Source: Actinomycetospora cinnamomea
GTDB taxonomy: Bacteria; Actinomycetota; Actinomycetes; Mycobacteriales; Pseudonocardiaceae
NCBI RefSeq assembly: GCF_003096675.1
Contig: NZ_QEKW01000005.1
Coordinates: 1-64,000 of the forward strand
Direction: 5' to 3'
DNA: 64,000 bases
The notes under the pieces were generated by a model. It was given only the letters and a program-made list of their open reading frames with translations, did no database searches and was not told the origin of the DNA. Made by a program: the position numbers and the translations under genes. Positions 5,385 through 64,000 of this stretch are shown here, one piece after another (position 1 is the stretch's first letter; the number at the start of each line of letters is the position of its first letter).

Positions 5385-5424
5385 GTGCGTGATCTTCTGA
5401 CCTATAGCTCAGAAGATCACGCAC
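5385..5424. repeat. 40-bp palindromic element, class I copy 1
   Basis: The left half GTGCGTGATCTTCTGACCTA and right half TAGCTCAGAAGATCACGCAC are complementary at 19 of 20 positions. A second copy at 63512-63551 is nearly identical. Similarity between the two extends beyond the palindrome to a CCAC left flank and a TAGGGG(A)CCACCGCG right flank, so the repeated unit is about 60 bp. Both strands read in the same phase are open and give related peptides (VRDLLTYSSEDHAR and VRDLLSYRSEDHAR). Here it is intergenic, between the IclR promoter region and the end of the YcaO gene. Confidence 0.85.
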
Positions 5425-5463
5425 GTAGGGGACCACCGCGGACCGGCCCCACGAGCTTCCCAG

Positions 5464-6963
5464 TCAGCGGAGGTCGACGGGCTCGCCGGCGTCGGCGCGG
5501 GCGAGCGCGTGGCGGCCGGGCTCGCGGTAGAGCGGGTAGAGCTCGCCGACGGTGCGGTCGACGGCCGCGCGGTCGAGCCACGCGGATCCGCCCAGGCGCT
5601 CGCGGCCCTCGGCGGTCAACGCGACGGGGGCCGCGCCGGCGTGCGGCGGCTCGCCGAGGCCGGCCAGCGTGCTGCCGCGGGCCAGGAGCCGCTCGACTCC
5701 CCGCGCGCCGATCCGCCCGTAGGACATCGTCTCGGCCTCGAGCCCCGGCACGATCACCTTGACCGCGGCCGCCGCGCCCGTGTCCGCGACGACCGTGAGC
5801 ACGTCGAAGCCGTCGAGACGGGCCAGCAGGTCGTCGAGGACGGCGCCCGGGTCGTCCAGCCCGGGGGTGTGCGGGAGGTCGGTGAACGCCACCGTCCCAC
5901 GGTGCGACAGCACGGTCGGGGCCAGCAGGTCGCGCAGCTCGGTGGCGGTGCGCCCGACCCAGTCGGCCATCGCCTCGAACGCCCGGCGCTCCTCGGCGTG
6001 CGGGGGCCGGGCGAGCTCGCGTTCCCAGTAGTCCGCGTCCATCAGCGGCCGCACGGCGTCCAGGTCGGCGTGGGCCACGAGCTTGCGGACCCGCGCCGCG
6101 CAGAACTCCAGCAGCGCCTTCTGCAGCGCGGCCTCCCGGTCGGCGTGCGCGGCCTCCCCGCACGCCGTCACCGCGATCGGGTGCGGGGCGTCCTCCGGGT
6201 CGGTGTCGTGGCCGACGACGTGCAGGACGGTGACGCCGAAGTCGGTCGAGGCGAGCTTGGCCGTCACCGTGACGCCGACGTCGGCGAGGTGGTCGAGCAG
6301 GCGACACGTCTCCGGGTCGCTCACCCCGGCGGTGTCGATGACGATGCCGCGGTCCATGGCGCGGAACGCCGTGGTGTTGCCGTCGCGCTGCAGCAGCTCG
6401 CCCAGCCCGTGCCCGACGGCGCGCTCGACGGTGTCGCCCGCCCCGCAGCCGTTGGTGATGACGGTGATCAGCCGCTCGTCGGCGGGCTGCCAGTCGATGT
6501 CCACCGGGTACGGAGCGGCGAACTCGGCGGGGACCAGCACCTCCTCGCCCGTGCGCCACCGCGTGGTGGGCAGCCACCAGCGCGGCCGGTCGGGGTCGTA
6601 GGCGGTGCCCGCGGGCAGCACGAGGGACACGGGGTCGGCGACGCGGTCGTCGCCGCGGGCCGCGCGCAGGTCGGTGTACGACCCGCGCACCGGCTCCAGC
6701 TCGCGCAGGCGCCGCGAGAGCAGCATCTCCTCGGCCAGCTCGGCGTGGGCGGCGACGCGGGCCCGCGACGCGGAGAAGCCGTAACCGAAGGCGGCGCTGC
6801 GCGGCCACCGCCCGGACGGGTCGGCGTAGTCGGCGCTCACCACCGCGACGCCCGTGCGGTCGGCGCCGTGGACCTCGTGGTCGCCCACCTCCCCGGGCGG
6901 CAGCGCCGCGTCGAGGTCCGCGGTGACGCGGTCGTGGGTCCCGTCGGCCGACGACCCGGTCAC
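5464..6963 (-). CDS. YcaO-domain protein
   Basis: 499 residues. YcaO signatures: FSASRARVAAHAELAEEML (about residues 83-101, the first ATP-binding helix), NGCGAGDTVERAVGHGLGEL followed by LQRDGNT (about 190-217), and the C-terminal half motif ACGEAAHADREAALQKALLEF. YcaO enzymes use ATP to activate backbone amides, forming azolines, thioamides or amidines in peptides, and some act outside peptide pathways. No Pro-rich C-terminus typical of azoline cyclodehydratases is present (it ends GEPVDLR), and no E1-like partner or precursor peptide gene is nearby. It is the last gene of a six-gene operon; its start overlaps the MBL stop. Substrate unknown. Confidence 0.85.
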   Translation of the reverse strand: MTGSSADGTHDRVTADLDAALPPGEVGDHEVHGADRTGVAVVSADYADPSGRWPRSAAFGYGFSASRARVAAHAELAEEMLLSRRLRELEPVRGSYTDLRAARGDDRVADPVSLVLPAGTAYDPDRPRWWLPTTRWRTGEEVLVPAEFAAPYPVDIDWQPADERLITVITNGCGAGDTVERAVGHGLGELLQRDGNTTAFRAMDRGIVIDTAGVSDPETCRLLDHLADVGVTVTAKLASTDFGVTVLHVVGHDTDPEDAPHPIAVTACGEAAHADREAALQKALLEFCAARVRKLVAHADLDAVRPLMDADYWERELARPPHAEERRAFEAMADWVGRTATELRDLLAPTVLSHRGTVAFTDLPHTPGLDDPGAVLDDLLARLDGFDVLTVVADTGAAAAVKVIVPGLEAETMSYGRIGARGVERLLARGSTLAGLGEPPHAGAAPVALTAEGRERLGGSAWLDRAAVDRTVGELYPLYREPGRHALARADAGEPVDLR

Positions 6964-7805
6964 GAGAGCTCCTCCAGCGGGATCGGGCCGGCCAGCGGCT
7001 GGGCGGAGAGCAGCCGGTCGTAGAGCGCGATGACCTGCTTGGTGGAGATCCCCGCCGCGTACTCGAACGGCGTGGCCACGGCCTCGAAGTCGAGCCGCTC
7101 GATCACCGCGTAGGCGTCACGGATCTCCTGGTGCGACAGCGGGATCTGCGCGTGGAACGCCTTGTGCGCCGACAGACCGACGGGCCGGCCGTCGGCGTCG
7201 AAGCTCGCCTTGAGCATGTCGCCGCAGAAGAGGATCCCGCGGCGCTCGTCGTGCAGCACCATGTGGCCGTCGAAGTGGCCGCCCGTGCGGTGGGCGACGA
7301 GCCCGGGCGCGAACTCGTGGCGGTCGTCGAGCGGCCACGTGACCCGGAAGGCCTTGGTCCACTCCAGGTCGCGGACCCCGATCGCCACCACCGGCGGGTC
7401 CAGCTCGTCCTGCAGCTGGAAGAGCGCGCCGTACCCGTGCACGTGGCTCGACGCCAGGGCCGCGAGCCCGCCGCGGCGGCGCAGCTCCTCGATCGCCGCC
7501 GGCGGGTAGAGCCCCGCGGCCTCCCAGCCGACCAGGCTCGTGCCACCCCCCGGGGGCCCGGTCTCGATCACCCAGCCACAGGTGCCCAGCCCGACCTGCG
7601 GCTCGCACCAGAACCCGGTGACGCCGGGCGTCACCTCCTCCCACCGGGCCTCGCGGCCGACGGCGAGGTCGTCGAACGCGCGGAACTCCCACCCGTCGGA
7701 GGGCAGGGCGTTGCGCACGTCGACACACACCGGGCACTGCGGCGGCGCCGCGAACCAGCGCTGCCAGTGACCGCAGTTGGTGCAGGTCCAGGCGCTCAGG
7801 GGCAT
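6960..7805 (-). CDS. MBL-fold protein with N-terminal zinc ribbon, degenerate metal motif
   Basis: 281 residues from ATG 7805, overlapping the upstream oxidoreductase by 10 bp. The N-terminus carries a rubredoxin-like ribbon, C8-x2-C11 and C24-x2-C27 (WTCTNCGHWQRW…PQCPVC). The rest fits the metallo-beta-lactamase fold: a GTCGWVIETG strand, LASSHVHGYGALFQLQ at the usual H-x-H-x-D-H position, GGHFDGHMVLH, and an FCGDML metal-ligand strand. The canonical H-x-H-x-D-H is reduced to HVHGYG, so one metal site should be altered or lost. It may be a divergent hydrolase, an electron-transfer partner or a binding protein for the pathway. Its position between YcaO and Gfo/Idh genes ties it to the biosynthetic operon. 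Confidence 0.8.
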   Translation of the reverse strand: MPLSAWTCTNCGHWQRWFAAPPQCPVCVDVRNALPSDGWEFRAFDDLAVGREARWEEVTPGVTGFWCEPQVGLGTCGWVIETGPPGGGTSLVGWEAAGLYPPAAIEELRRRGGLAALASSHVHGYGALFQLQDELDPPVVAIGVRDLEWTKAFRVTWPLDDRHEFAPGLVAHRTGGHFDGHMVLHDERRGILFCGDMLKASFDADGRPVGLSAHKAFHAQIPLSHQEIRDAYAVIERLDFEAVATPFEYAAGISTKQVIALYDRLLSAQPLAGPIPLEELS

Positions 7806-8794
7806 GCCGCCTCCATCAGCAGGGCGTGCAGGGCGAGGTCGCGCTCGAGCGGGTAGGGCCAGGCCGTCTCGCCGCGCACCGCGGCACCGAACGCGGCGAG
7901 CTGGCGGGAGAAGGGGCCGGCTTCGGCGTCGAACGCGACGGGTTCGGCCACCCCGGTCACGGCGTCGATCCGCGTGAGCCGGCCGCCGGGGTCCTGGCCG
8001 AGGGTGTCCTCGGCGACGGCCTGGGCGCGGGTCCCGACGACCTCGAGACGCCGGCGGGGCAGCGGGTCCGCGGTGGAGAAGCTGACGTGCTGTGTCAGCA
8101 ACGTGCCGCTCGCCGTGCGGCCGGCCAGCACCGCGCCATCGTCGGGCCGCACGGCGTCGGCCGCCGTCCCGACGTAGTGGTGCACCCGGGTAGCGGTCAG
8201 CGCCACGAGGTCGACGAGGTCCTCGCCGAGGATCCGGCCGGTGAGGTCGACGCCGTGGGGGGCGAGGTCGATCATCGCGCCGCCGCCGGCGCGCGCCGGA
8301 TCCACGCGCCAGTTGTCCCGCCCGCCGGTCGGCGTCGCCCAGTCCGGTGGCAGCCAGCACCCGTAGACGATCCGCACGGTCGTCACGACGCCCAGCTCGC
8401 CGCCGGCGACCATCGCGGCGATCGCCTCGTGCGCGGGGTGGAAGCGCTGGTCGAACGCGGTGCCGGCGAGCAGCCCGGAGGCCGCCGCCACCATCTCCTT
8501 CGCGGTCGCCACGTCGTGGGCCAGCGGCTTCTCGCACAGCACCGGGATGCCGGCGGCCGCGACCGCCGCGACGACGGGCGCGTGCGCGTGGTTGGGCGTG
8601 GCGACGTACACCGCGTCGAGGCCCGGGGCGGCGAGCAGGGCGTCGAGGTCGCCGAACGCCGGCGCGAGCCCCTCCAGCGCCGCCGGGTCGCGGTCGTGGA
8701 CGCCGACCAGGTGGGCGGACGGGTCGGCGGTGACCGCGGGCAGGACGAAGTCGCGCGCCACCCACCCGGCGCCGACGACCCCCCAGCCGGTCAC
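7796..8794 (-). CDS. Gfo/Idh/MocA-family NAD(P)-dependent oxidoreductase
   Basis: 332 residues. GTG 8794 overlaps the upstream TGA in a GTGA junction. The Rossmann fold begins WGVVGAGWVARDFVLPAV (GxGxxA/G fingerprint), with DAVYVATPNHAHAPVVAAV and the family catalytic-lysine motif LCEKPLA at about residues 95-101. The C-terminal domain contains DLAPHGVDLTGRILG, matching the conserved histidine region. Family members oxidise or reduce sugars, inositols and other cyclitols using NAD(P). Next to an inositol-3-phosphate synthase gene, a cyclitol or sugar phosphate substrate is plausible, but this is inference from context. Confidence 0.88.
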   Translation of the reverse strand: MTGWGVVGAGWVARDFVLPAVTADPSAHLVGVHDRDPAALEGLAPAFGDLDALLAAPGLDAVYVATPNHAHAPVVAAVAAAGIPVLCEKPLAHDVATAKEMVAAASGLLAGTAFDQRFHPAHEAIAAMVAGGELGVVTTVRIVYGCWLPPDWATPTGGRDNWRVDPARAGGGAMIDLAPHGVDLTGRILGEDLVDLVALTATRVHHYVGTAADAVRPDDGAVLAGRTASGTLLTQHVSFSTADPLPRRRLEVVGTRAQAVAEDTLGQDPGGRLTRIDAVTGVAEPVAFDAEAGPFSRQLAAFGAAVRGETAWPYPLERDLALHALLMEAACP

Positions 8795-9951
8795 CACGGC
8801 TCCGGCAGGTCGACGAGCAGACGGCGGGCGACCGCGTCGCCGGGCAGCGGGTCGGGCCAGCGCCGGGGCAGGTAGGTCGACGCGCGCGGCCCGTACTCCT
8901 CGCCCCACACGGGGTTGGGCCAGCGCCGCTCGCCGTCGGCGTAGAGCGGGTTGGGACGCAGGTCGGCGCCCGGCGCGGGGTCGAGGAACCCGGGCTCGGG
9001 CACGGCGGCGCCCTCGTCGCGGGCCAGCGCCACGGCCTCGGTGTCGCCGAGATCCCCGGTGTCGGCGGACCGGGGCAGGCGACGCTCCAGGGTGGCCGAG
9101 GTCAGCTCCTCCTCGCCGTACGTGCTCGCCCCGGGCAGCAGTGCGGCCCAGCCCTCGGGCGGGCGCGGGTGACCGGGCCGGCCCGTGGTGTGGCAGTGCG
9201 CGGCGACGACGGCCCCGCCCGCCCCGGCGTGCTCCGCGGCCGTGGCGAGCACGGCGGCAGGGTCGTCGAGGAAGTAGAGGACGTCGTGCACGGCCACGTA
9301 GGCGTCCCCGGCCGGCGACACCGGCCACGGGTGGCCGAGGTCGGCGCAGACGAGGGCGACGTCGTCGCCGACGACGAACCGGCGGGCGAGCCAGAGCTTG
9401 GCGAAGACGACGTCGATGCCGGTCAGGGGTCCCTCGTGGGCCTGCGCGAGGCGGCGCAGCAGGTGCCCGGCCCCGCACGCGAGGTCGAGCACCGGGCGCC
9501 CGGCCGGCGGGTGCGCGGCGGTGAGGGCGAGCACCGCGAGGCCCGACGGGTCGTGGTCGCGGTGCAGGAAGTAGTCGCCCACCCGACCGAGGCCGAGCCC
9601 GGCCACGGCCTCCCGCAGCGTCGTGGCGTCGAGGACGGCGCGCAGCTGCTCGGCCGGCGGCGGGGGCTCGTCCCACCAGTCGTCGTTGTCGGCGAGCAGT
9701 ACGGCCGCGGCGTCCCGCTCCCGACCGTCGTCGAGGGCGGTGAGCGCGGCGTCCCGCACCGCGTCCCGCCCCGCCCGCAGGTACGGGACGCCCGCGAACA
9801 CCGGCCACCGCGTCGTGCCGTCGGTGAGGCTGTGCGGGGTGTCGGCGCGCAGCGCGGCCCCGTTCTCCGGGCTCCGCACGGCGGCAGCGAACGCGCGGTT
9901 CGCTGCTTCTATGCGCGCGAACTCCCCGTTCGCGGCACGCGGCGCGCTCAC
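8791..9951 (-). CDS. Class I SAM-dependent methyltransferase (large, about 386 aa)
   Basis: GTG 9951 overlaps the upstream TGA. The first 140 residues are an extra domain with a DNDDWWDEPPPPAEQ segment. The SAM-binding motif I is VLDLACGAGHLLRRLAQAH (about residues 155-173), followed by GIDVVFAKLWLARRF and a motif-like VHDVLYFLDD. The C-terminus is Trp/Pro-rich (RRWPNPVWGEEYGPRASTYLPRRWP), unusual for small-molecule methyltransferases. It is embedded in the six-gene operon and coupled on both sides, so a role in tailoring the operon's product is likely; the acceptor is unknown. Confidence 0.82.
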   Translation of the reverse strand: MSAPRAANGEFARIEAANRAFAAAVRSPENGAALRADTPHSLTDGTTRWPVFAGVPYLRAGRDAVRDAALTALDDGRERDAAAVLLADNDDWWDEPPPPAEQLRAVLDATTLREAVAGLGLGRVGDYFLHRDHDPSGLAVLALTAAHPPAGRPVLDLACGAGHLLRRLAQAHEGPLTGIDVVFAKLWLARRFVVGDDVALVCADLGHPWPVSPAGDAYVAVHDVLYFLDDPAAVLATAAEHAGAGGAVVAAHCHTTGRPGHPRPPEGWAALLPGASTYGEEELTSATLERRLPRSADTGDLGDTEAVALARDEGAAVPEPGFLDPAPGADLRPNPLYADGERRWPNPVWGEEYGPRASTYLPRRWPDPLPGDAVARRLLVDLPEPW

Positions 9952-12073: not shown

Positions 12074-12312
12074 GCGGTCCTCCTCGACCCTGAGCCTCCA
12101 GGTCCGATCGGACCCCCGCCGAGGTACCAACGGTCGTGCGCGGTCGAAACGGTGATTCGGCGACGAGCGGTGCGGCCCGCCCGGTGCTCGGGGTCCCGAG
12201 GGGCACCCCGGGAAACGCCGGGGTCGGGCACGGAAGCCGCCGGCCGGACGTTGGGGGAGTGTCGGGAGCGAGGACCCCGGGAACGGCCCGGGGCACACGG
12301 AACGGAGGCGTC
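12074..12312. promoter_or_regulatory. Divergent intergenic region between the inositol operon and pspC
   Basis: 239 bp without a gene, between two divergent starts, so promoters for both sides should lie here. The GAGGAGGAC box at its left end serves the minus-strand gene and CGGAGG at 12303-12308 serves the plus-strand gene. I could not identify convincing -35/-10 pairs or operator palindromes. Confidence 0.4.
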
Positions 12313-12495
12313 ATGGCCACGCTGACCAGGCCACAGCACAACAAGGTGATCGCGGGTGTGTGCGCGGGACTGGCGGAGCGCTTCGGGATGTCGGCCGGGG
12401 TCGTGCGCCTGCTGTTCGTGCTGTCGTGCCTGCTGCCGGGCCCGCAGTTCGTGATCTACATCGCGCTGTGGGTGATCATGCCGAAGGCGTGGTGA
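12313..12495 (+). CDS. PspC-domain small membrane protein
   Basis: 60 residues from ATG 12313, preceded by CGGAGGCGTC. It is a complete stand-alone PspC domain: a basic N-terminus (LTRPQHNKVIAGVCAGLAER), GMSAGVVRLLFVLS, then a hydrophobic segment (LLPGPQFVIYIALWVIMP) forming one or two membrane passes. PspC proteins belong to the phage-shock envelope-stress response. Its neighbour is an SPFH protein, another membrane-microdomain component. No PspA homologue is visible here. Confidence 0.9.
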   Translation: MATLTRPQHNKVIAGVCAGLAERFGMSAGVVRLLFVLSCLLPGPQFVIYIALWVIMPKAW

Positions 12496-13694: not shown

Positions 13695-13701
13695 GACCCC
13701 A

Positions 13702-15854: not shown

Positions 15855-15866
15855 GTCGTGCCGGGC

Positions 15867-37397: not shown

Positions 37398-37930
37398 GGG
37401 CGCACGGTAGGGCACCGCAGGTCCCGTGCCCACCGCCAGACCGTGCCCTCCTCGGGGTCCGTGGCCTCGCCGTCGCGGAGGAAGCCGTGGCGGCGCAGCA
37501 CCGTCGTCGACGCGGTCTCCTCGGGCCGGGTGTGCGCCACGACCCGGCGCAGCCCGGCCGCGGTGGCGTGCGCGAGCCACAGCCCGACCGCCGCCGTCGC
37601 CACGCCCCGGCCCCGACGCGAGGGCGCGACCGAGTAGCCGATCTCGACCTGGCCGTCGACCGGAGGGCCGGTGAAGCCGCCGAGCCCCACCACCTCGTCC
37701 CCCTCGACGACCAGGTGGGCGAACCACGCCGGGTCGACCCCGCCCTCGAGCGCGGTGACGGTGGGCTCCAGCGCCTCCGGGAACGCCAGGAACCCCTCGA
37801 CCGGCGTGAGCCCGAAGCGCTCGGCGAACGCCTCCGGCTCGGTCAGCAGCGTCACCGCCTGTTCGGGCTGCAGCGGCACGACCTCGATCCCCACGTGAGC
37901 GATGTTCGCGGCTACAGCCGTGAATTTCAC
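37394..37930 (-). CDS. GNAT-family N-acetyltransferase
   Basis: About 178 residues from GTG 37930, or 166 from GTG 37894. The first 12 residues of the longer form are encoded by the 40-bp palindrome at 37895-37934, so the shorter start, giving VGIEVVPLQPEQ, is probably the ancestral one. The acetyl-CoA site is EIGYSVAPSRRGRGVATAAVGLWLAHA (R-x-x-G-x-G/A motif), followed by ASTTVLRRHGFLRDG. Substrate unknown. It is immediately downstream of the acyl-CoA dehydrogenase stop and overlaps the next gene, so it may be the tail of the catabolic operon. Confidence 0.82.
   Translation of the reverse strand: MKFTAVAANIAHVGIEVVPLQPEQAVTLLTEPEAFAERFGLTPVEGFLAFPEALEPTVTALEGGVDPAWFAHLVVEGDEVVGLGGFTGPPVDGQVEIGYSVAPSRRGRGVATAAVGLWLAHATAAGLRRVVAHTRPEETASTTVLRRHGFLRDGEATDPEEGTVWRWARDLRCPTVRP

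Positions 37931-37934
<4 letters not shown>
37895..37934. repeat. 40-bp palindromic element, class I copy 2
   Basis: Halves GTGAGCGATGTTCGCGGCTA and CAGCCGTGAATTTCACTCAC match as inverted repeats at 15 of 20 positions, with GTGAGY ends. The element supplies the stop codon of the acyl-CoA dehydrogenase on the minus strand (the TGA of GTGAG) and the first codons of the longer GNAT reading. Read from each strand in the element phase it gives VSDVRGYSREFHSH and VSEIHGCSREHRSR. Confidence 0.8.
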
Positions 37935-39088
<1,154 letters not shown>

Positions 39089-45622: not shown

Positions 45623-47248
45623 TCACATCCGGAACGGCGCGAAGCGGGTCGCACCGGTGATCGGGGCCGAGTGGACGGCCGAGAGCGCCAGCCCCAGGAC
45701 CGTCCGCGTGTCGCGGGGGTCGATCACGCCGTCGTCCCACATCCGCCCCGAGGCGTACACCGCGTTCGACTGGGCCTCGACGGCGTCCTCGATCGCCTTG
45801 CGGGTCGCGCGGTCGGTCTCCTCGTCGTACTCCCGGCCCGCCCGCTCGGCCGAGCGCCGCTGCACCATCGACATCACCCCCGCCAGCTGCGTCCCGCCCA
45901 TGACCGCGATGCGGTGGTTGGGCCAGGTGAACACGAACCGCGGGTCGTAGGCGCGCCCGGACATGCCGTAGTTCCCGGCGCCGTAGGACGCGCCGACCAT
46001 CAGCGTCAGGTGCGGGACCTCGGAGTTCGACACCGCGTTGATCAGCTTCGCGCCGTCCTTGATGATCCCGCCCCGCTCGTAGGCCGAGCCCACCATGAAC
46101 CCCGTGATGTTCTGGACGAACAGCAGCGGGATCGATCGCGCGTTGGCGAGCTGGACGAACTGCGCGCCCTTCTGCGACTCCTCGGAGAACAGGATCCCGT
46201 TGTTCGCCAGCACGCCGACCGGGAAACCGCCGATCGAGCCCCAGCCGCACACCAGCGTCGTGCCGTAGAGCGGTTTGTGCTCGTCGAACCGCGAGCCGTC
46301 GAGCACGCGGGCCAGGACGTCGCGCACCTCGACCGAACGCTTCGGATCGCTCGCGGCGCAGGCCAGCAGTTCCTCGGCGTCGAACCGCGGCGGGTCCGCC
46401 GGCAGCGACGGCCCCGGTCCACCGCGACGCCAGCCCAGGTCGGCGACGATCCGCCGCCCGATCCGCAGGGCGTCGCGCTCGTCGGCCGCGAGGTGGTCGG
46501 CGAGCCCCGACTCGCGGGCGTGCATCTCCGCCCCGCCGAGGGTCTCGTCGTCGACGTCCTCGTTGATCGCCATCTTCACCAGCGGCGGCCCGCCCAGGTA
46601 CACCGTCGCCTGCCCGCGGACGAACACCGTGTACTCGCTCATCCCCGGCATGTACGCCCCGCCGGCCGTCGACGAGCCGAAGACCAGCGCGATCGTCGGG
46701 ATGCCCCGCGCCGAGAGCCGCGTCATCTCCCGGAACGTCCGCCCGCCCGGCACGAACAGGTCGGCCTGGCGGGGCAGGTCGGCGCCTCCGGACTCGACGA
46801 GCGCGATCACCGGCAGCCGGTTGCGCTCGGCGATCTCCAGGGCCCGCAGCTGCTTGGTGACGCCGATCGGCGTGATCGACCCACCCTTGACGGTGGGCTC
46901 GTTCGCGACGACCAGGCACTCGACGCCGCTGACCGCCCCGATCCCGACGACGAGCCCCGCGCCCGGCCTGGTCAGGTCCGGTTCGTGGGCGCCGGCGAGC
47001 GCACCGATCTCGAGGAACGCGGCGTCGGGGTCGAGGAGCAGGTCGACGCGCTCGCGCGCGGTGAGGCGGCCCCGGTCGTGGTGCCGGTCGACGTACTTCG
47101 CCCCGCCGGCCTCGAGCACCGTCGCGGCCACCTCGTCGACACCGGCCAGTGTGGCGAGCATCGCCTCGCGGTCGGCGGCGTACTCGGGCGAGGACGGGTC
47201 GAGCCGCGAGCCCAGCACCGCGGCGGGCGAGATCTCCGGGACGCTCAT
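45623..47248 (-). CDS. Acyl-CoA carboxylase beta subunit (carboxyltransferase)
   Basis: 541 residues from ATG 47248 (ATGA with TIGR03084 gene). Carboxyltransferase signatures: KYVDRHHDRGRLTARERVDLLLDPDAAFLEIG, VVANEPTVKGGSITPIGVTKQLRALEIAERNRLPVIALVESGGADLPRQA, IALVFGSSTAGGAYMPGMSEYTVFVRGQATVYLGGPPLVKMA, and LFVQNITGFMVGSAYERGGIIKDGAKLINAVSNSEVPHLTLMVGASYGAGNYGM. This matches methylcrotonyl/geranyl-CoA carboxylase beta subunits. A partner alpha subunit follows after a 96-bp gap that contains a palindromic element. Confidence 0.93.
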   Translation of the reverse strand: MSVPEISPAAVLGSRLDPSSPEYAADREAMLATLAGVDEVAATVLEAGGAKYVDRHHDRGRLTARERVDLLLDPDAAFLEIGALAGAHEPDLTRPGAGLVVGIGAVSGVECLVVANEPTVKGGSITPIGVTKQLRALEIAERNRLPVIALVESGGADLPRQADLFVPGGRTFREMTRLSARGIPTIALVFGSSTAGGAYMPGMSEYTVFVRGQATVYLGGPPLVKMAINEDVDDETLGGAEMHARESGLADHLAADERDALRIGRRIVADLGWRRGGPGPSLPADPPRFDAEELLACAASDPKRSVEVRDVLARVLDGSRFDEHKPLYGTTLVCGWGSIGGFPVGVLANNGILFSEESQKGAQFVQLANARSIPLLFVQNITGFMVGSAYERGGIIKDGAKLINAVSNSEVPHLTLMVGASYGAGNYGMSGRAYDPRFVFTWPNHRIAVMGGTQLAGVMSMVQRRSAERAGREYDEETDRATRKAIEDAVEAQSNAVYASGRMWDDGVIDPRDTRTVLGLALSAVHSAPITGATRFAPFRM

Positions 47249-48069
47249 GCGCGGACCGGACCCTTCCCCGGCGTCCCCGCGAACGCCTGCCCCAGCAGCA
47301 TCCACTCACGCGCGGCGTCGCCGGTGACGACGAGCCCGGTGTCGTCGACGTGGCGCCGCCGCACGAGCACGAGGCAGAACTCCTCGACGTCGCCGGTGAT
47401 GGCGTCGCCACGTGAGCGATCCGGGTCGTCATGGCGACCCGGATCACTCACGCGAGCTCCGCTCATCCACCCCCACACCGCGCCGGACGGACCGGTGAGC
47501 TCGACGCGGACGGGGGTGTCGGGGACGTCCATCCCGCGCACGCGGTAGCCCTGTGCGCGGGCGCGGACGGCGAGGTCGGCGACGTGGCGCAGGCGGTCGG
47601 ACGGCGGCAGCCGCGTCCCCAGCGCGTCGGCGACGTCCGCGCCGTGCGCCCAGGTCTCCATGATCCGGCTGGTGATCGCCGACCGCAGCGACATCGCCGG
47701 CCCGAACCAGGGCAGCCGCGCGGTGGGGTCGCAGGCCCGGGCGGCGCGGTCGAAGGCGACGGCCGCCTCCTGCCAGGCCGCGAGCGCCGCCGGCCCGGAC
47801 GCCGGCACCTGTGCGTTCGCGGCGTCGACGAAGCCCTCGACGTCGGTGATCGCGTCACGCTCGGCCTCGAACGCCTCGGGCGTGGAGATCGCGCGGGCGA
47901 ACGCGCCGTCGAACCACGCGAGGTGGGCGACCTGGTCGCGCACCGTCCACGGCTCCGCCCGCGTCGGGCGCGACCAGTCCGCGGGCGGCCGGTCACGCAG
48001 CAACGCCATCACCGCGGCGCGCTCGTCGTCGAGGTCGGCCAGCAGCTCGTCGACCGAGGGCCCGGCCAT
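47245..48069 (-). CDS. TIGR03084-family metal-binding protein with an in-frame palindromic insertion
   Basis: 274 residues from ATG 48069, which overlaps the upstream dehydrogenase stop by one base. DinB-like N-terminus: ELLADLDDERAAVMALLRDRPPADWSRPTRAEPWTVRDQVAHLAWFDGAFARAI with a metal-ligand His. ITSRIMETWAHGADVADALG adds H-x-x-D, and the C-terminus FCLVLVRRRHVDDTGLVVTGDAAREWMLLGQAFAG is the family signature. Residues 207-220 (VSDPGRHDDPDRSR) come from the class I palindrome at 47412-47451, inserted in the loop after SGAVWGWM. The family recurs in actinobacterial acyl-CoA degradation clusters; reaction unknown. Confidence 0.87.
   Translation of the reverse strand: MAGPSVDELLADLDDERAAVMALLRDRPPADWSRPTRAEPWTVRDQVAHLAWFDGAFARAISTPEAFEAERDAITDVEGFVDAANAQVPASGPAALAAWQEAAVAFDRAARACDPTARLPWFGPAMSLRSAITSRIMETWAHGADVADALGTRLPPSDRLRHVADLAVRARAQGYRVRGMDVPDTPVRVELTGPSGAVWGWMSGARVSDPGRHDDPDRSRGDAITGDVEEFCLVLVRRRHVDDTGLVVTGDAAREWMLLGQAFAGTPGKGPVRA
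47412..47451. repeat. 40-bp palindromic element, class I copy 3 (inside TIGR03084 gene)
   Basis: Halves GTGAGCGATCCGGGTCGTCA and TGGCGACCCGGATCACTCAC pair at 18 of 20 positions. In frame with the surrounding gene. Plus- and minus-strand readings in element phase give VSDPGRHGDPDHSR and VSDPGRHDDPDRSR, almost the same peptide. Confidence 0.85.
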
Positions 48070-50908: not shown

Positions 50909-51592
50909 ATGACGGAGCCGGTGGTGGCCCCGGGGCGGGCCCGCGGCGGGCGGCGCGACGAGATCCTGGCGACCTTCACCCGGCACGTCGCCGAGCGCGG
51001 CTACGACCGTGCGAACTTCGGCGACGTCGCCGCCGAGCTGGGAATGAGCAAGGGCACGATCGTCCACCATTTCGGCACCAAGCACCGGTTGCTGGCCGAG
51101 GTGCAGGAGCGCTACATGCGCCGCCGCCTCGACGAGGCCCACGCCCTGCTGGCGCGGCTGCCCGCGCCGGAGCAGCGGATCGCGGCGTTCGTGCACGCAG
51201 GCGTGCGCTACTCCACCGACGAGCCGGCGACGACGGTCGCCTTCCAGCGCGAGGTCGTGCGCCTGACCGACGAGCCCGGGATGGAGACCGCGCGGGCCCA
51301 GCGCGACGCGTACCGCGACCTGGTGGTGGCCGTCCTGCAGGACGGGGCCGACGCCGGGGTCTTCCTGCCCGGCGACGCCCGGCTGCGCAGCCTGCAGATG
51401 TTCGGCTCGCTGCACTGGATGTGGACGTGGTTCGACCCGGCGGGCCGGCTGCGGCCCGGGGACGTGGCCGCGGAGTTCTGTCGCACGCTGCTGCGCGGCC
51501 TCGGCGTCCCCGAGGACGAGACCGCCACGGCCGCCGACCCCGACGGGCCGGTCGCGCGCTGCGTCGCGGAGGTGTGCGCTCCGCGCCCGTGA
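50909..51592 (+). CDS. TetR-family repressor of the adjacent acyl-CoA operon
   Basis: 227 residues from ATG 50909. Helix-turn-helix: RRDEILATFTRHVAERGYDRANFGDVAAELGMSKGTIVHHFGTKHRLLAEVQERYM (about residues 15-70), in the subgroup that regulates fatty-acid and steroid catabolism. The ligand domain includes VVRLTDEPGMETARAQRDAYRDLVVAVLQDGADAGVF and LQMFGSLHWMWTWF. It is divergent from the ten-gene operon and probably senses an acyl-CoA. Its stop codon TGA is the second to fourth base of the palindrome at 51589-51628. Confidence 0.9.
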   Translation: MTEPVVAPGRARGGRRDEILATFTRHVAERGYDRANFGDVAAELGMSKGTIVHHFGTKHRLLAEVQERYMRRRLDEAHALLARLPAPEQRIAAFVHAGVRYSTDEPATTVAFQREVVRLTDEPGMETARAQRDAYRDLVVAVLQDGADAGVFLPGDARLRSLQMFGSLHWMWTWFDPAGRLRPGDVAAEFCRTLLRGLGVPEDETATAADPDGPVARCVAEVCAPRP

Positions 51593-51628
51593 GCACTCTC
51601 GACTGCTCCAGCACCCGGAAGTGCTCAC
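51589..51628. repeat. 40-bp palindromic element, class I copy 4
   Basis: Halves GTGAGCACTCTCGACTGCTC and CAGCACCCGGAAGTGCTCAC pair at 15 of 20 positions (outer nine perfect). The left end carries the TetR stop codon, and the right end overlaps the last codons of the convergent membrane-protein gene. It could double as a bidirectional terminator. Element-phase peptides are VSTLDCSSTRKCSH and VSTSGCWSSRECSR. Confidence 0.78.
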
Positions 51629-52434
51629 ACGCGCGTCAGCGCACCAGCCCACTCCGCGAAGCCGGGGCTGGTCGGCGGCCAGAGCCAGCCCAGGGCGAGC
51701 TGGGCGACGGCGACGACGGCCAGCGCGAACACCAGCCCGCGCCGCGGACGGCGCGGGACGGCGATGAGCGCGAGGAGGGTGAACAGCACGGTGGTGCTGA
51801 CCTGTGTGAACAGCAGCCCCGTCCAGACCGCGACGACCGACCCGGCGATGGGCAGGAGGTAGCCGATCAGCGGCAGCGGTTCGCGGATGCCCATGGAGAC
51901 CGCCATGAGCAGATACAGCGGGGCGTGCAGCAGGCCGAGGCCGACGGTGACGGTGGCGGCACCGAGCGAGGCCCAGACCCCGCCGGGGAAGGCGAGGAAA
52001 CCGGGGCTGTCGACGAGCGTCGCGAACGCCGCGCCGGAGAAGCGCCACTGCAGGAACGTCCACGCCGCGATGACGAACACGACGGGGAAGACCACGACGC
52101 CGACCGTCGCGGGGACGGCGGAGGGCTCGTCGCGGAAGCGTTCCCGCGCCAGGAAGACGGTCGAGGCGCCGAGTGCGAGCGCGAACGGCACGGTGATCGG
52201 ACTGAAGCAGAACGCGAGGGCCAGGGCGAGACCGGCGCTGAACCCGCCCTCGGTGCTGCGCTCGCGCGCGAACCGCACGAAGCCCTGGACGGCGATCGCG
52301 AGCAGCGAGAGCGTCGCGATGCCGGGCAGGCTCTCGCTGACGAGGTAGGCCACCGCCGGCACGCCGAGGATCGGCAGGAGCAGCAGCCCGACCAGCCACC
52401 ACGGGACGTCCCGCCGAACGGAGCACGCGCGCAA
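51625..52434 (-). CDS. Multi-spanning membrane protein of unknown function
   Basis: 269 residues from GTG 52434. About seven hydrophobic helices are visible: WWLVGLLLLPILGVPAVAYLV, GIATLSLLAIAVQGFV, FSAGLALALAFCFSPITVPFALALG, VGVVVFPVVFVIAAWTFLQW, AATVTVGLGLLHAPLYLLMAV, LPLIGYLLPIAGSVVAVWTGLLFTQV and GLVFALAVVAVAQLALGWLW. No family recognised and no charged membrane motif typical of a transporter. The C-terminal codons overlap the class I palindrome by a few bases. Upstream lies a strong hairpin. Confidence 0.72.
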   Translation of the reverse strand: MRACSVRRDVPWWLVGLLLLPILGVPAVAYLVSESLPGIATLSLLAIAVQGFVRFARERSTEGGFSAGLALALAFCFSPITVPFALALGASTVFLARERFRDEPSAVPATVGVVVFPVVFVIAAWTFLQWRFSGAAFATLVDSPGFLAFPGGVWASLGAATVTVGLGLLHAPLYLLMAVSMGIREPLPLIGYLLPIAGSVVAVWTGLLFTQVSTTVLFTLLALIAVPRRPRRGLVFALAVVAVAQLALGWLWPPTSPGFAEWAGALTRV

Positions 52435-52435
52435 G

Positions 52436-52471
52436 GGGCCCGGGACCGCTCGATCGAGTGGTCCCGGGCCC
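52436..52471. terminator. Strong GC-rich hairpin between membrane-protein and reductase genes
   Basis: GGGCCCGGGACC (52436-52447) pairs perfectly with GGTCCCGGGCCC (52460-52471); the 12-nt loop contains the palindrome TCGATCGA. It sits directly after the stop of the RibD-like gene on the minus strand and just before the next start, so it is probably a terminator. No T-run. Confidence 0.55.
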
Positions 52472-52480
52472 TCGGGGTGC

Positions 52481-54106: not shown

Positions 54107-54163
54107 GTGTCAGCGGTGTGGCACCACGGACACTGGGTGTCCGTGGTGCCACACCGCTGACAC
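54107..54163. repeat. Perfect 57-bp palindromic element, class III
   Basis: Arms 54107-54133 and 54137-54163 (27 bp each, starting GTGTCAGCGGTGTGGCACCA) are perfectly complementary around TGG. Both strands are open in the second phase and give CQRCGTTDTGCPWCHTADT and CQRCGTTDTQCPWCHTADT. It lies 33 bp upstream of the fpg start in the divergent intergenic region. It may fold into a very stable hairpin, and is a single copy in this window. Confidence 0.88.
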
Positions 54164-58730: not shown

Positions 58731-58816
58731 CGGAGCGGACTCGACTGATGCGCTCTACCGGCGGGTACACGACGGACCGCACCCGAACGGACGACGACGT
58801 CGGTGGGAGAACCCGG

Positions 58817-60190: not shown

Positions 60191-60200
60191 GACGGCACCC

Positions 60201-61769
60201 ATGGAGCGCGTCACACCGGCCCCCTTCAGCTTCACCGAGCTGACGCCCACGGCCTTCCTCGACCGGTCGGCGCACGCGTTCGCCTCCCGCGACGCGATCG
60301 TCGACGAGGGAGTCCGCTTCACCTACGCCGAGTTCGGGGCGCGCTCGCGGCGGCTCGCCGGCGCCCTGCACGAGCTCGGTATCGAGCCGGGTGACCGCGT
60401 CGCGGCGCTGTGCACGAACAGCCACGTGATGCTCGAGTGCCACCACGGCGTGCCCTACGCGGGCGCGGTGCTCGTGCCGCTGAACACCCGGCTCTCGGTC
60501 GACGAGATCGTCCACATCGTCGAGCACTCCGGCGCGCGCCTGCTGATCGTCACCCGCGAGCTCGTGACGCAGGCGCGGGCGGTCGCCGAGCGGACCGGCG
60601 TGGAGCTCGTCGAGGAGGGCGAGCGCTACGAATCGATCGTGGCCGAGGCCCCGGAGCGGGTCGTGCCCGTCGGCGACGAGCGCGGTCTGCTCGCGATCAA
60701 CTACACCTCGGGCACGACCGGGCGACCCAAGGGCGTCATGTACCACCACCGGGGCGCGAACCTGCAGGCCCTGGCCATGGCGTTCCACCTGCGGCTCGAG
60801 CCCGCCTCGCGCTACCTGTGGACGCTGCCGATGTTCCACTGCGACGGCTGGTGCTTCCCCTGGGCGGTCACGGCGGCCGGCGCGCTGCACGTGTGCCTGC
60901 GGGCGATCGACGCCGAGGAGATCTGGCGTCTCATCCGCACCGAGGGCGTCACCCACTACTGCGCGGCGCCCACCGTGCTGACGATGATCGCCCACGCGCA
61001 GGCCGCGAAGGAGGGCCCGGCGCCCGAGCGCGTCACGGTCGCGACGGGCGGGGCCCCGCCCTCCCCGACGCTGCTGGCGCAGATGGACGAGCTCGGCATG
61101 TCGATCACCCACCTCTACGGCCTGACCGAGACCTACGGCCCGGCCGCGGTCAACGACTGGCAGCCGGAGTGGGACCACCTCGACGCGACCGAGCAGGCGC
61201 GGCTCAAGGCCCGTCAGGGGGTCGGCAACGTGATCGCGCAGCGGCTGCGCGTGCTCGACGAGCAGACCGGCGTGGAGGTGCCGTCCGACGGCGAGACGAT
61301 GGGCGAGCTCGTGCTGCGCGGCAACGACGTCATGCTCGGCTACTACCGCGACCCCGAGGCCACCGCCGAGGTGGATGCCAGAATTCCGGGAGAGCATGCC
61401 GATAGGGGGTGGTTCCGGACCGGTGACCTCGGCGTCGTGCACCCCGACGGCTACGTGGAGATCCGCGACCGCAGCAAGGACGTGATCATCTCCGGTGGGG
61501 AGAACATCGCGTCGGTCGAGGTCGAGCGCGTGCTGGACAGCCACCCCGCGGTCATCGAGTCGGCGGTGGTCGGCGCCCCGGACGAGCGGTGGGGCGAGGT
61601 GCCCGTGGCGTACGTGGCGGTGCGCGAGGAGGTCGCCCCGGACGAGCTGATCGCGCACGTGCGCACCCACCTGGCCCGGTTCAAGGCCCCGAAGCGGATC
61701 GTGTTCGGCGAGCTGCCGAAGACGTCCACCGGGAAGATCCAGAAGAACGTGCTCCGCGATCAGGGGTGA
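60201..61769 (+). CDS. Acyl-CoA synthetase (AMP-dependent ligase, FadD/alkK-type)
   Basis: 522 residues from ATG 60201. Motifs: LLAINYTSGTTGRPKGVMYHHRGAN, PMFHCDGWCFPWAVTAAGAL, HLYGLTETYGPAAV, and RDRSKDVIISGGENIASVEVE; catalytic Lys in STGKIQKNVLRD. The FHCDGW motif is characteristic of medium/short-chain acyl-CoA ligases of the alkK/DmdB group. Around residues 391-402 is an unusual AT-richer stretch (61372-61410) encoding VDARIPGEHADRG before GWFRTGDLG, where relatives have a much shorter loop. Confidence 0.92.
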   Translation: MERVTPAPFSFTELTPTAFLDRSAHAFASRDAIVDEGVRFTYAEFGARSRRLAGALHELGIEPGDRVAALCTNSHVMLECHHGVPYAGAVLVPLNTRLSVDEIVHIVEHSGARLLIVTRELVTQARAVAERTGVELVEEGERYESIVAEAPERVVPVGDERGLLAINYTSGTTGRPKGVMYHHRGANLQALAMAFHLRLEPASRYLWTLPMFHCDGWCFPWAVTAAGALHVCLRAIDAEEIWRLIRTEGVTHYCAAPTVLTMIAHAQAAKEGPAPERVTVATGGAPPSPTLLAQMDELGMSITHLYGLTETYGPAAVNDWQPEWDHLDATEQARLKARQGVGNVIAQRLRVLDEQTGVEVPSDGETMGELVLRGNDVMLGYYRDPEATAEVDARIPGEHADRGWFRTGDLGVVHPDGYVEIRDRSKDVIISGGENIASVEVERVLDSHPAVIESAVVGAPDERWGEVPVAYVAVREEVAPDELIAHVRTHLARFKAPKRIVFGELPKTSTGKIQKNVLRDQG

Positions 61770-61858
61770 GGGTCGGTCCGCGCTGCGGTGTCGGCTTCCG
61801 TCCGGTCCGAGACGGGTGCACAGTGAGGGGCGTCACGGCACGTGAGGAGGGGTGCGCC

Positions 61859-62383
61859 ATGGCGACCTCACGATGGGGCCGGCTCTTCGGCCGCGGATCG
61901 AGGGCCGGTCGCGACGACCGGGCGACCGACACCACGCCGCCCGCGTACACGGGCATCGGTGCGCCCCGCCCCTACGACCCGCCGCCCGGGGCGCCCGGCC
62001 CCCCGCCGCCGGCCGGACCGGCCGCACCGCGGCTCGCCGACCCGGCGCCGACCCGCGTCGGCCCACCGGTGCCCGGCCCGCGTCCCGCCCCGTCCCCGTA
62101 CGAGCACGCCTCGACGGTGACGCGCGCGCAGTACGACGAGGCGGTCCGGCGCCGCCGGGCGGCCGACCAGCAGGTGGGCGTGTTCGAGCGCTTCGAGGCC
62201 AAGCTGACCGAGCAGATCCACCACGCGACCGAGCAGGAGCGGCACGACTACGTGCGCGAGCTGCTGAGCCGGCGCATCGCCGTGCGGTCGCGGCTCGAGG
62301 AGGCGACCCTGCGGCGCAACCGGCTCCTCGAGCGCGAGCAGGAGCTCGGCGCGGGCCTCGCGCCGTCGGCGGGGTGGCGGTGA
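61859..62383 (+). CDS. Pro-rich/coiled-coil hypothetical protein
   Basis: 174 residues from ATG 61859, with GAGGAGGGG upstream. A short basic N-terminus (TSRWGRLFGRGSRAGRDDR) leads to a 50-residue Pro/Gly/Ala-rich disordered stretch. The C-terminal 90 residues form a likely coiled coil (YDEAVRRRRAADQQVGVFERFEAKLTEQIHHATEQERHDYVRELLSRRIAVRSRLEEATLRRNRLLEREQEL). No known family; coiled-coil assembly is inferred. It is unlikely to be membrane-bound. Confidence 0.7.
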   Translation: MATSRWGRLFGRGSRAGRDDRATDTTPPAYTGIGAPRPYDPPPGAPGPPPPAGPAAPRLADPAPTRVGPPVPGPRPAPSPYEHASTVTRAQYDEAVRRRRAADQQVGVFERFEAKLTEQIHHATEQERHDYVRELLSRRIAVRSRLEEATLRRNRLLEREQELGAGLAPSAGWR

Positions 62384-62411
62384 CGTCCTGCGCCGTCCTG
62401 GCGCCGGCGTC

Positions 62412-62795
62412 CTACCGCTGGGCGGTGGGCACCACGTAGACCGCGGTGCCGTAGGCGGCGATCTCGCTCGCGGAGTTGGCGATCTCGTTGCAGTCGAAGC
62501 GCATCGCCAGCACCGCGTTCGCGCCGCGCGCCAGCGCCTCCTGCGACAGCCGCGCCAGGGCCTCGTGCCGCGAGTCCGACAGCAGCTTCGACAGCCCCTT
62601 GAGCTCGCCGCCCGCCATCGCCTTGAAGCCCGCACCCATGGTCGAGAACATGTTGCGGCTGCGGACGGTGAGGCCGAAGACCTCGCCGAAGACGCGGACG
62701 ACCTGGTAGCCGGGCAGGTCGTTCATCGTCGAGAGCAGGATCGGGTACTGCTGCCCCCCGTACTGGAACTGTTGGTCCTGCTGCTGCGGCTGCAC
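62412..62795 (-). CDS. YbjQ/heavy-metal-binding-domain family protein
   Basis: 127 residues from GTG 62795. After a Gln-rich start (PQQQDQQFQYGGQQYP) comes the YbjQ core: ILLSTMNDLPGYQVVRVFGEVFGLTVRSRNMFSTMGAGFKAMAGGELKGLSKLLSDSRHEALARLSQEALARGANAVLAMRFDCNEI and AAYGTAVYVVP. This 100-residue homopentameric fold is conserved in bacteria with unknown function (a metal role was proposed from the domain name). Longer starts would add an unlikely Arg/Ala-rich lead. Confidence 0.88.
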   Translation of the reverse strand: MQPQQQDQQFQYGGQQYPILLSTMNDLPGYQVVRVFGEVFGLTVRSRNMFSTMGAGFKAMAGGELKGLSKLLSDSRHEALARLSQEALARGANAVLAMRFDCNEIANSASEIAAYGTAVYVVPTAQR

Positions 62796-62836
62796 GGCGC
62801 GGAGCGTAGCGGCGCGCGATCGCGCCCCGGGCGACG

Positions 62837-63406
62837 TCACCCCGGGCGGGCGTGCAGGGCCGCGCGCGTCATGGCGACGAGCACCGGCGCGGCGACCGCG
62901 GCGCGGGTGTGGCCCGCGCTGCGGGGGGTCGAGTTCATCAGCCCGAACGCCGCGTGCGCACCGACCCGCGCGGTCTCCTCGCCGGCCGCGAGCCCCGCGC
63001 GCCGCAGCGCGTCCACCCAGATCTCGACGTACGCCCGCTGCAGCCCCCGCACGCGGCGCCGGGCGGCGTCGGGGAGGTTGGCGAGATCCCGGTCCTGCAC
63101 GGTGATGAGCTCGGGCTGGCGCAGCGCGAAGTCGGTGTGGAACGCGATGAGCGCGTCGAGCAGCGCGTCCGGGTCGCCGTGCTCGGCGGCGAGCTCCTGT
63201 CCGCCGGCGAGCAGGTGCTCGCTGATGCCGACGAGCATCTCGGCGAGCAGGCCCTCCTTCGACGGGAAGTGGCGGTAAAGCGCCGGGCCGCTGACGCCCA
63301 CCGCCGCGCCGATGCCGTCGATGGACACCCCGTGGAAGCCGTGGCGGGCGAACAGCCGCGCGGCCTCGGCGAGGATCTGCTCGCGGCGGGACGTCGTGAC
63401 GGGCAC
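62837..63406 (-). CDS. TetR-family repressor divergent from a carboxylase gene
   Basis: 189 residues from GTG 63406. Helix-turn-helix: SRREQILAEAARLFARHGFHGVSIDGIGAAVGVSGPALYRHFPSKEGLLAEM, followed by an all-helical ligand domain (DALIAFHTDFALRQPELITVQDRDLANLPDAARRRVRGLQRAYVEIWVDALR), typical of SACE_7040-like regulators next to acyl-CoA carboxylase/dehydrogenase operons. It is divergent from the carboxyltransferase at 63488 with an inverted repeat between. Ligand probably a branched acyl-CoA. Confidence 0.9.
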   Translation of the reverse strand: MPVTTSRREQILAEAARLFARHGFHGVSIDGIGAAVGVSGPALYRHFPSKEGLLAEMLVGISEHLLAGGQELAAEHGDPDALLDALIAFHTDFALRQPELITVQDRDLANLPDAARRRVRGLQRAYVEIWVDALRRAGLAAGEETARVGAHAAFGLMNSTPRSAGHTRAAVAAPVLVAMTRAALHARPG

Positions 63407-63444
63407 GCTCGCACCCTACGACCCCTTGCCAGGGGACGTGAACG

Positions 63445-63466
63445 AACGCTAACGTGAATGAGCGTT
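63445..63466. promoter_or_regulatory. Inverted repeat AACGCT-N10-AGCGTT, candidate TetR operator
   Basis: Arms AACGCT (63445-63450) and AGCGTT (63461-63466) around AACGTGAATG, in the 81-bp divergent region between TetR and carboxylase genes. The locally lower GC (GTGAATGAGCGTTAAC) suits a promoter/operator. Spacing and sequence fit TetR acyl-CoA regulators; binding is inferred. Confidence 0.5.
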
Positions 63467-63487
63467 AACACGACGAGGAGGTCGAGC

Positions 63488-64000
63488 GTGGCCGCGCCGA
63501 GCACCGACCACGTGCGTGATCTTTCGAGCTATAGCTCAGAAGATCACGCACATAGGGGCCACCGCGCGCTCGTCGCCGACCTGCGGGAGCGGCTGGCCGC
63601 CGCGCGGCTCGGCGGGCCGGAGCGCTCGCGGGAGCGCCACGTCGAGCGGGGCAAGCTCCTGCCGCGCGACCGGGTGGACGCGCTGCTCGACCCGTCGAGC
63701 CCGTTCCTGGAGCTCTCGCCGCTTGCGGCGACGGGGATGTACGGCGACGCCGCGCCGGGCGCGGGGATCATCACCGGGGTCGGGCGCATCGCCGGGCGCG
63801 AGTGCGTGGTCGTCGCCAACGACGCCACCGTCAAGGGCGGCACCTACTACCCGATGACGGTGAAGAAGCACCTGCGCGCCCAGGAGGTGGCGCTGCACAA
63901 CCGGCTGCCGTGCGTCTATCTCGTCGACTCGGGCGGGGCGTTCCTGCCCGAACAGGACCAGGTGTTCCCCGACCGCGAGCACTTCGGGCGCATCTTCTAC
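63488..64000 (+). CDS. Acyl-CoA carboxylase beta subunit (5-prime part; runs off the right edge)
   Basis: 171 codons from GTG 63488 (GAGGAGGTC upstream) to the window end with no stop. [52 protein letters not shown], then [73 protein letters not shown]: the methylcrotonoyl/propionyl-CoA carboxyltransferase N-domain. Residues 9-22 ([14 protein letters not shown]) come from a class I palindrome inserted in frame. Probably the first gene of a leucine- or propionate-type operon regulated by the divergent TetR protein. Confidence 0.92.
63512..63551. repeat. 40-bp palindromic element, class I copy 5 (inside carboxyltransferase gene)
   Basis: Halves GTGCGTGATCTTTCGAGCTA and TAGCTCAGAAGATCACGCAC pair at 18 of 20 positions. 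Nearly identical to copy 1 at 5385-5424, including the flanks CCAC and TAGGGG-CCACCGCG. It sits in frame between DH and RA of the expected N-terminus [13 protein letters not shown], adding about 18 residues. Confidence 0.88.

What the first reader, a model, noticed from the sequence alone, without database searches (positions are those of the whole stretch)
5385..63551. Family of 40-bp palindromes with GTGMGY ends, five copies, different cores
Five elements (5385-5424, 37895-37934, 47412-47451, 51589-51628, 63512-63551) share exact 40-bp length, palindromic symmetry (15-19 of 20 pairs) and ends GTG(A/C)G(T/C)…(A/G)C(G/T)CAC, but except for copies 1 and 5 their central sequences differ. Conserved length and structure with changed paired cores is what one expects if the folded form or its mobilisation is selected. 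No transposase or insertion sequence is nearby. Read in the phase starting at GTG, every copy is open on both strands and gives related 14-residue peptides (V-S/R-x…S/A-R/H). Resemblance to Rickettsia palindromic elements is by analogy.
Basis: partly seen in the sequence, partly recalled or inferred. Interest (0 to 1): 0.9.

Follow-up and report, generated by a model that had tools for sequence, protein, structure and literature searches.

The report
Hairpin DNA inserted inside bacterial genes
A bacterium and its relatives carry scores to hundreds of 40-letter mirror-symmetric DNA units, some sitting in frame inside genes, and at the same gene position different species hold different versions that resemble copies elsewhere in their own genome, as if resident copies were repeatedly overwritten.

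Summary
The five 40-bp palindromes are real. They belong to a genome-wide family: 192 pattern matches against 7 for the reversed control, also in 17 of 17 congeners. The genus is Actinomycetospora. Exactly 40 bp is privileged.

Most copies lie at gene 3' ends. Some lie inside unrelated genes: 15 found, 14 distinct sites, all in the open GTG phase. Window copy 3 is one. Orthologues without the unit exist.

In MocR-type, GT9 and PfkB/HldE-like genes, nine species of one clade carry the unit at the same position, with different, mostly still palindromic cores. In 18 of 18 testable cases the core is closer to a copy elsewhere in its own genome than to the sister species' orthologue. Type A or near-A cores occupy these sites nine times and need nine changes on the tree. 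The asymmetric variant at window 63512 occurs at only one other place in 18 genomes, inside the GT9 gene.

It works like a Rickettsia palindromic element with in-place overwriting, but is not a member of that family (length, ends). No Y1 transposase was found (0 of 18). The machinery is unknown.

The parts
5385..5424 (.). type A 40-bp palindrome, 19/20 pairs, between an IclR-type gene (4443-5324 -) and a YcaO gene (5464-6963 -)
37895..37934 (.). type E palindrome, 15/20 pairs; holds the stop codon of the acyl-CoA dehydrogenase gene 37931-39088 (-); the eight relatives aligned across the site have a 40-bp palindrome there with another core
47412..47451 (.). type C palindrome, 18/20 pairs, in frame inside the gene 47245-48069 (-)
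47245..48069 (-). host gene, MDMPI_N-domain protein; the insert reads VSDPGRHDDPDRSR. Of nine genomes aligned across the position, 3 carry the unit, 1 has a remnant, 5 lack it
51589..51628 (.). palindrome nearest to type D, 15/20 pairs, between convergent genes 50909-51592 (+, TetR-type) and 51625-52434 (-, no Pfam match), both of which end at stop codons inside the element
63512..63551 (.). type A palindrome with an asymmetric variant, 18/20 pairs; the identical variant occurs at one other place among 18 genomes, inside the GT9 gene (G000:C9:172444-172483 -)

Best explanation
A family of selfish repeats built on one 40-bp palindromic unit. Shown: the unit is repeated genome-wide; it is present in some species and absent in others at orthologous sites; it occupies intergenic 3' ends and protein-coding genes (in the phase that stays open on both strands); and at fixed sites its core differs between sister species far more than the flanks do, resembling other copies of the same genome. 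Inferred: copies spread by a non-reciprocal, gene-conversion-like copying of the unit. A resident or incoming hairpin (cruciform or folded single strand) is opened, and the conserved ends GTGMGY...RCKCAC plus the exact 40-bp length let another copy serve as template. Because every unit is 40 bp, overwriting does not shift the reading frame, so coding copies persist as short expendable peptides. At 3' ends the units are tolerated, often supply stop codons and probably a transcript-end hairpin. The copying machinery is not identified.
For: Family and length. In-frame coding copies, 15 of 15 found in phase 0 (14 distinct sites). Orthologues without the unit: HldE-like site, 7 of 7 aligned members of the other clade; MDMPI_N gene, 5 of 9; convergent stop codons TGA|TCA without insert in G000 and G017 where G010 has 52 bp more. 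Same coding position with different cores: MocR and GT9, 9 of 9 species of one clade; HldE-like, 8 aligned plus G012. In twelve sister comparisons the unit differs at 140 of 480 positions and the 80-bp flanks at 162 of 1888. MocR coding site: 94.4% of cells paired, 8 of 18 pairs with a change on both sides (4 of 500 shuffles reach 8), covariation score 0.383 against 0.142 shuffled (0 of 500) and at most 0.101 when slid. 18 of 18 coding-site units are closer to another copy in their own genome than to the sister's orthologue. Type A or near-A (0-2 differences) at these sites: 3, 4 and 2 occurrences, needing at least 3, 4 and 2 changes on a tree whose four sister pairs have 100/100 support. Exact type A: 24, 8, 8 and 1 copies in four genomes, 0 in 14, including the sisters G007, G008 and G011 (G007 is 84% complete). 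Shared asymmetric variant at window 63512 and in GT9 only. Foreign codon usage of the inserts: mean log-odds -0.52 to -0.63, gene-window median 0.37, first percentile -0.22.
Against: No trans-acting factor is linked to the units. Only Y1_Tnp was sought, and it is absent. No lone half-elements of type A, which could be ends of a larger transposon, were found in the sampled stretches. No target-site duplication was seen. Own-genome closeness compares the best of 6 to 43 distinct copies with one orthologue, which favours the own genome; against the best of all orthologues it is 10 closer, 7 tied (all type A or near-A), 1 farther (GT9 in G002, 5 against 2, only 7 copies known there). The change counts cannot tell gain of type A from its loss in the sisters (stated by the tool). 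Type A is identical across species, so horizontal transfer of gene segments was not excluded site by site. Next to the unit, some sister flanks differ by a 3-nt shift (GT9, MocR) or by about 11-12 nt on one side (MocR), so exchange is not always confined to 40 bp. One of the covariation measures, further pair types, is not exceptional (12 against 9.7; 42 of 500 shuffles reach it). Out-of-phase insertions mostly meet a stop codon and would be missed or called as gene ends by my gene script, so the 15 of 15 in phase is partly a selection effect.
Confidence: 0.6

Rival explanations
1. The units are bidirectional, I-shaped transcription terminators or 3'-end mRNA hairpins under selection for structure, not mobile DNA; in-gene copies are accidents.
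For: Density per 10 kb is 9.5 in convergent gaps, 3.1 in co-directional, 0.46 in divergent and 0.04 in coding DNA. 24 of 48 nearby gene ends take their stop codon from the unit. Predicted RNA hairpins of -20 to -33 kcal/mol for six units. At 37895 the eight relatives aligned across the site keep a palindrome.
Against: Conserved occupancy of three protein-coding sites, with paired core changes tested at one of them, where termination would be harmful. Exact 40-bp length is not needed by terminators. Identical type A copies in genomes with diverged flanks. No run of four T within 15 nt on either side of 46 units, though actinobacterial terminators are said to do without (recalled).
Confidence: 0.15
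2. In-place template switching during replication copies one arm onto the other, so palindromes drift as symmetric units without exchange between loci.
For: Paired changes are common; the mechanism is discussed for coding palindromes in PMC6649704 (passages seen).
Against: It does not readily give the exact type A in separate lineages, nor switches between unrelated subfamilies at one site (D against C, E against C; A against D at GT9), nor the shared asymmetric variant. It may still act alongside.
Confidence: 0.08
3. Excision followed by fresh insertion at the same hot spots by an unknown transposase, rather than overwriting of residents.
For: Sites with and without units exist; small flank indels accompany some exchanges.
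Against: No empty allele among the nine species at the MocR, GT9 and HldE-like sites; boundaries often exact to the base.
Confidence: 0.17

Closest known systems
Rickettsia palindromic elements (RPE)
   Same: Palindromic repeats in many copies, about half of them in frame inside protein genes (PMC10969869, passages).
   Different: RPEs are about 150 bp, end in CGTC in R. conorii (PMC3733652, passages), and were found to lose repeat identity over time (as cited in PMC6649704, passages). Here 40 bp, GTGMGY ends, symmetry largely kept, cores exchanged in place.
GTAG REPs / REPINs with RAYT transposases
   Same: 20-40 bp palindromes, mostly downstream of genes, often supplying stop codons, some inside ORFs; different REPs at about the same site of recB in two Xanthomonas species (PMC3733652, abstract in listing and passages; REPINs: PMC3116915, passages).
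   Different: No GTAG tag at the ends of the 40-bp unit; no Y1 transposase in 18 of 18 genomes.
GC clusters of yeast mitochondria (var1)
   Same: Short palindromes, some in frame in a coding gene, associated with gene conversion, new forms by shuffling (PMC8811140, passages).
   Different: Mitochondrial; terminal AG/TAG repeats; no fixed 40-bp unit reported in what I read; no sequence relation tested.

Membership tests
Rickettsia palindromic elements | In-frame insertion into unrelated protein genes, with orthologues lacking it | tested here: met
Rickettsia palindromic elements | Length about 150 bp | tested here: not met
   unit 40 bp; about 70 bp with side hairpins, read; family length
Rickettsia palindromic elements | CGTC tag at one end | tested here: not met
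   ends GTGMGY/RCKCAC; tag from PMC3733652
Rickettsia palindromic elements | Repeat symmetry decays over time | tested here: not met
   94.4% of cells paired at the MocR site in nine species; single units at coding sites fall to 14 of 20 pairs, so some decay occurs
REP / REPIN | GTAG tetranucleotide at one end | tested here: not met
   GTAG occurs beside some type A copies only as flank
REP / REPIN | Companion Y1 (RAYT) transposase | tested here: not met
   PF01797: 0 of 18 genomes, 5 of 14 controls positive
REP / REPIN | 20-40 bp palindrome, mainly downstream of genes | tested here: met
Intrinsic terminator | Stops transcription at the hairpin | not testable with these tools
   no RNA data; position bias fits
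MITE derived from a known transposon | Ends shared with a full-length transposon; target-site duplication | tested here: inconclusive
   no lone half-elements of type A in the sampled stretches; no duplication seen by eye at the sites compared

The most novel reading that the evidence does not exclude
A homing-like cassette-exchange system acts genome-wide on 40-bp palindromes: an unknown factor recognises the common ends and length and replaces the core of resident units, including those translated inside proteins, so that one recent master sequence rewrites the same peptide insert in several unrelated enzymes of one species. The same 40-bp, GTGAG-ended, often TATA-centred design with its own cores in two other genera of the family would make it an old system of the Pseudonocardiaceae.
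Probability: 0.35. Interest if true: 0.92.

Novelty: new variant of a known kind. Interest (0 to 1): 0.8.

Why it matters
Palindromic DNA that enters protein genes in frame is best known from Rickettsia and from mitochondria (passages), with cases among REPs. Here it is found in a high-GC actinobacterial genus with 18 searchable genomes that allow direct comparison. It shows whole-core exchange at conserved coding positions, in separate lineages, that keeps length, frame and most of the symmetry; I did not find this reported in my ten paper searches. The closest precedent seen is the remark on recB in Xanthomonas. It makes the open question of how such tiny elements copy themselves directly testable.

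Tried and rejected
Rfam: no family in the window. RAYT/IS200-type mobilisation: PF01797 absent in 18 of 18 genomes. Larger transposon with the same ends: no lone type A half-sites in the sampled stretches; half-site matches of other types are few and look like chance or decayed copies, and one 43-bp variant of type B exists in G017, so 40 bp is not absolute. Mobile carriers: type A pattern 0 hits in viral contigs; no BLAST match in plasmids or phages. I first took extra palindromy of flanks for insertion into older hairpins. Counting showed instead that types B, C and D often carry small 4-6 bp side hairpins (15 of 26, 12 of 16 and 11 of 14 flanks; random 10%), whereas A and E do not (0 of 32, 3 of 40). 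The AlphaFold2 model of the HldE-like protein (mean pLDDT 73) puts the insert between two helices at modest confidence; I ran no fold search. My first palindrome survey without fixed ends was uninformative.

Gene calls come from a simple codon-usage script of my own, not a standard annotator. An earlier count said 11 closer and 6 tied; the correct counts are 10 and 7. Copy numbers printed include double listings (G000 53 entries are 43 copies; 3 of the A. callitridis copies are listed twice). One search was superseded, which excludes copies that share flanks with the site. In one search G012 has no label at the HldE-like site because my alignment had dropped its locus; one search shows that it carries an insert. 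G004, incomplete, lacked usable loci for the three coding sites and is not in the tree. Of the seven HldE-like orthologues without the unit, G003, G009 and G013 have some other extra bases there. Names for G005, G011 and G002 (straminea, lutea, chibensis) are inferred from matching sequences and flanks; G017 and G010 (callitridis, succinea) from equal contig lengths.
Full report
OBSERVATION. The five elements are as described: 40 bp, with 19, 15, 18, 15 and 18 of 20 dyad pairs. Five matches in the window compare with 0.45 expected; none of 100 shuffles reaches five. The genome (5.97 Mb, 50 contigs) has 192 matches against 7 for the reversed pattern. The 17 congeners have 71-277 against 1-11. 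In other genera of the family some are rich (91, 51, 279, 164) and many are near background. In 1.264 Mb of the genome (C1:1-800000, C2:1-400000 and the window) the length 40 stands out sharply: 46 end pairs, 41 with at least 60% of the pairs inside the ends; all other lengths from 20 to 80 together give 5. The genus belongs to the Pseudonocardiaceae.

ANATOMY. I sorted the units into five subfamilies that share ends and length: A (GATCTTCYGAGCTATAGC...), E (GANNTTCNNGGCTATAGC...), B (TGCTTGTCCGTGCC...), C (GATCCGGGTCG...), D (AGCAG or AGCAC...GTGCT...). Assignment is by nearest reference, and some units are far from any. B, C and D are often flanked by small hairpins of 4-6 bp, commonly with a GGA loop; A and E are not. 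In two other genera the same 40-bp, GTGAG-ended design, often with a TATA-like centre, has its own cores (G030, G019; G021 and G020 were counted but not listed).

WHERE THEY LIE. In the sample, 43 units with at least 15 pairs divide into 21 co-directional gaps, 14 convergent, 2 divergent, 5 coding and 1 edge. Per 10 kb the first four are 3.1, 9.5, 0.46 and 0.04. An earlier count by end pattern alone gave 22, 12, 5, 5 and 2 of 46. In the 80 loci: 25 co-directional, 39 convergent, 2 divergent, 8 coding, 6 edge. Of 48 gene 3' ends near a unit, 24 take the stop codon from it. So they gather at 3' ends, as REPs do.

INSIDE GENES. Fifteen units were found inside genes, 15 of 15 in the GTG phase. The A. 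callitridis MocR site was counted twice, so 14 sites. The other phases usually hold stops (open in 8 to 33 of 64 units), so out-of-phase insertions would tend to look like gene ends. Hosts by Pfam: an MDMPI_N protein (window copy 3); a GntR/aminotransferase (MocR-type) regulator, between its two domains; a family 9 glycosyltransferase; a PfkB plus cytidylyltransferase protein (HldE-like; the name is recalled); and a two-module NRPS whose two adenylation domains each hold a unit at the same place. One more unit lies in the neighbouring large gene, which I took for an NRPS from its motifs (recalled). Insert codons are foreign to these genomes (GC3 0.38-0.54, gene median 1.0).

PRESENCE AND ABSENCE. 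The HldE-like gene lacks the unit in 7 of 7 aligned members of the second clade. The MDMPI_N gene has it in 3 of 9, a remnant in 1, none in 5. Between two convergent genes G000 and A. callitridis read TGA directly followed by TCA, where A. succinea has 52 bp more. No target-site duplication was seen.

EXCHANGE IN PLACE. At window copy 2 the eight relatives aligned across the site have a 40-bp palindrome at the same place, with different cores and even a different subfamily. The same holds inside genes. At the MocR and GT9 sites nine of nine species of one clade carry a unit; at the HldE-like site eight aligned ones do, and G012 also has an insert. At the MocR site cores differ yet remain paired: 94.4% of cells, 8 of 18 pairs changed on both sides (4 of 500 shuffles reach this), covariation score 0.383 against 0.142 shuffled, 0 of 500; one further measure is unexceptional. 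Over twelve sister comparisons the unit differs at 29% of positions and the flanks at 8.6%, often with the boundary exact to the base, sometimes with up to about 12 nt of one flank changed. A tree from the flanks of the three genes gives four sister pairs at 100/100. Type A or near-A occurs 3, 4 and 2 times at the three sites and needs at least 3, 4 and 2 changes; the count does not give the direction. In all 18 cases that could be tested (three sites, six genomes with known dispersed copies) the coding unit is closer to another copy in its own genome than to the sister's unit at the same site. Against the best of all orthologues it is 10 closer, 7 tied, 1 farther. Exact type A: 24, 8, 8 and 1 copies in four genomes and none in 14, including three sister species; this makes a recent spread of A the simpler direction. 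The variant of window copy 5, asymmetric and therefore recognisable, occurs at exactly one other place in 18 genomes, inside the GT9 gene of the same genome.

HOW IT MOST LIKELY WORKS. Shown: repetition, presence and absence at orthologous sites, in-frame residence, different whole cores at fixed sites, and a rare variant shared by an intergenic and a coding copy. Inferred: non-reciprocal copying between units, using the common ends and equal length, perhaps started by cruciform or hairpin processing. The equal length explains why coding copies can be rewritten without frameshift. Terminator function alone does not explain coding copies; arm-to-arm template switching alone does not explain subfamily switches or identical type A. 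Excision and reinsertion is not excluded.

COMPARISON. It behaves like Rickettsia palindromic elements (about 150 bp, in frame) and like REPs, which also supply stop codons and enter ORFs. It fails their defining length or tags, and no Y1 transposase was found in 18 of 18 genomes. Yeast GC clusters are near in behaviour: palindromes in frame in var1, gene conversion. Papers were read as passages only; one RPE paper that I asked for is not held. Ten paper searches gave no report of these units (listed under why it matters); the library lacks most subscription journals.

Noticed in passing
window 54107-54163: A second palindrome family: 27-bp perfect inverted repeat with a 3-nt loop (GTGTCAGCGGTGTGGCACCACGGACAC...). 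Similar sequences recur elsewhere in the genome sample, and related arrays sit at the GT9 site in the other clade (G016, G003, G001, G014).
   Followed up: partly
G000 C1:551679 and C1:554817: Two adenylation domains of one NRPS protein carry the unit at the same position after the ...WSTA.H motif.
   Followed up: partly
window 52434-52473: Another strong 40-bp palindrome (17 of 20 pairs) without the family ends.
   Followed up: no
L129, MocR linker: In the second clade the MocR linker of this genome holds a different inverted repeat (CGTCGTTGCCGTC...GACGGCGACGACG).
   Followed up: no
L073 and L083 (both G007): Two contigs of G007 cover the same region with different units, one like that of G017; possibly mixed or contaminated assembly.
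   Followed up: no
L100 (G002), MDMPI_N gene: A partial remnant that keeps only one end of the unit suggests loss by deletion.
   Followed up: no
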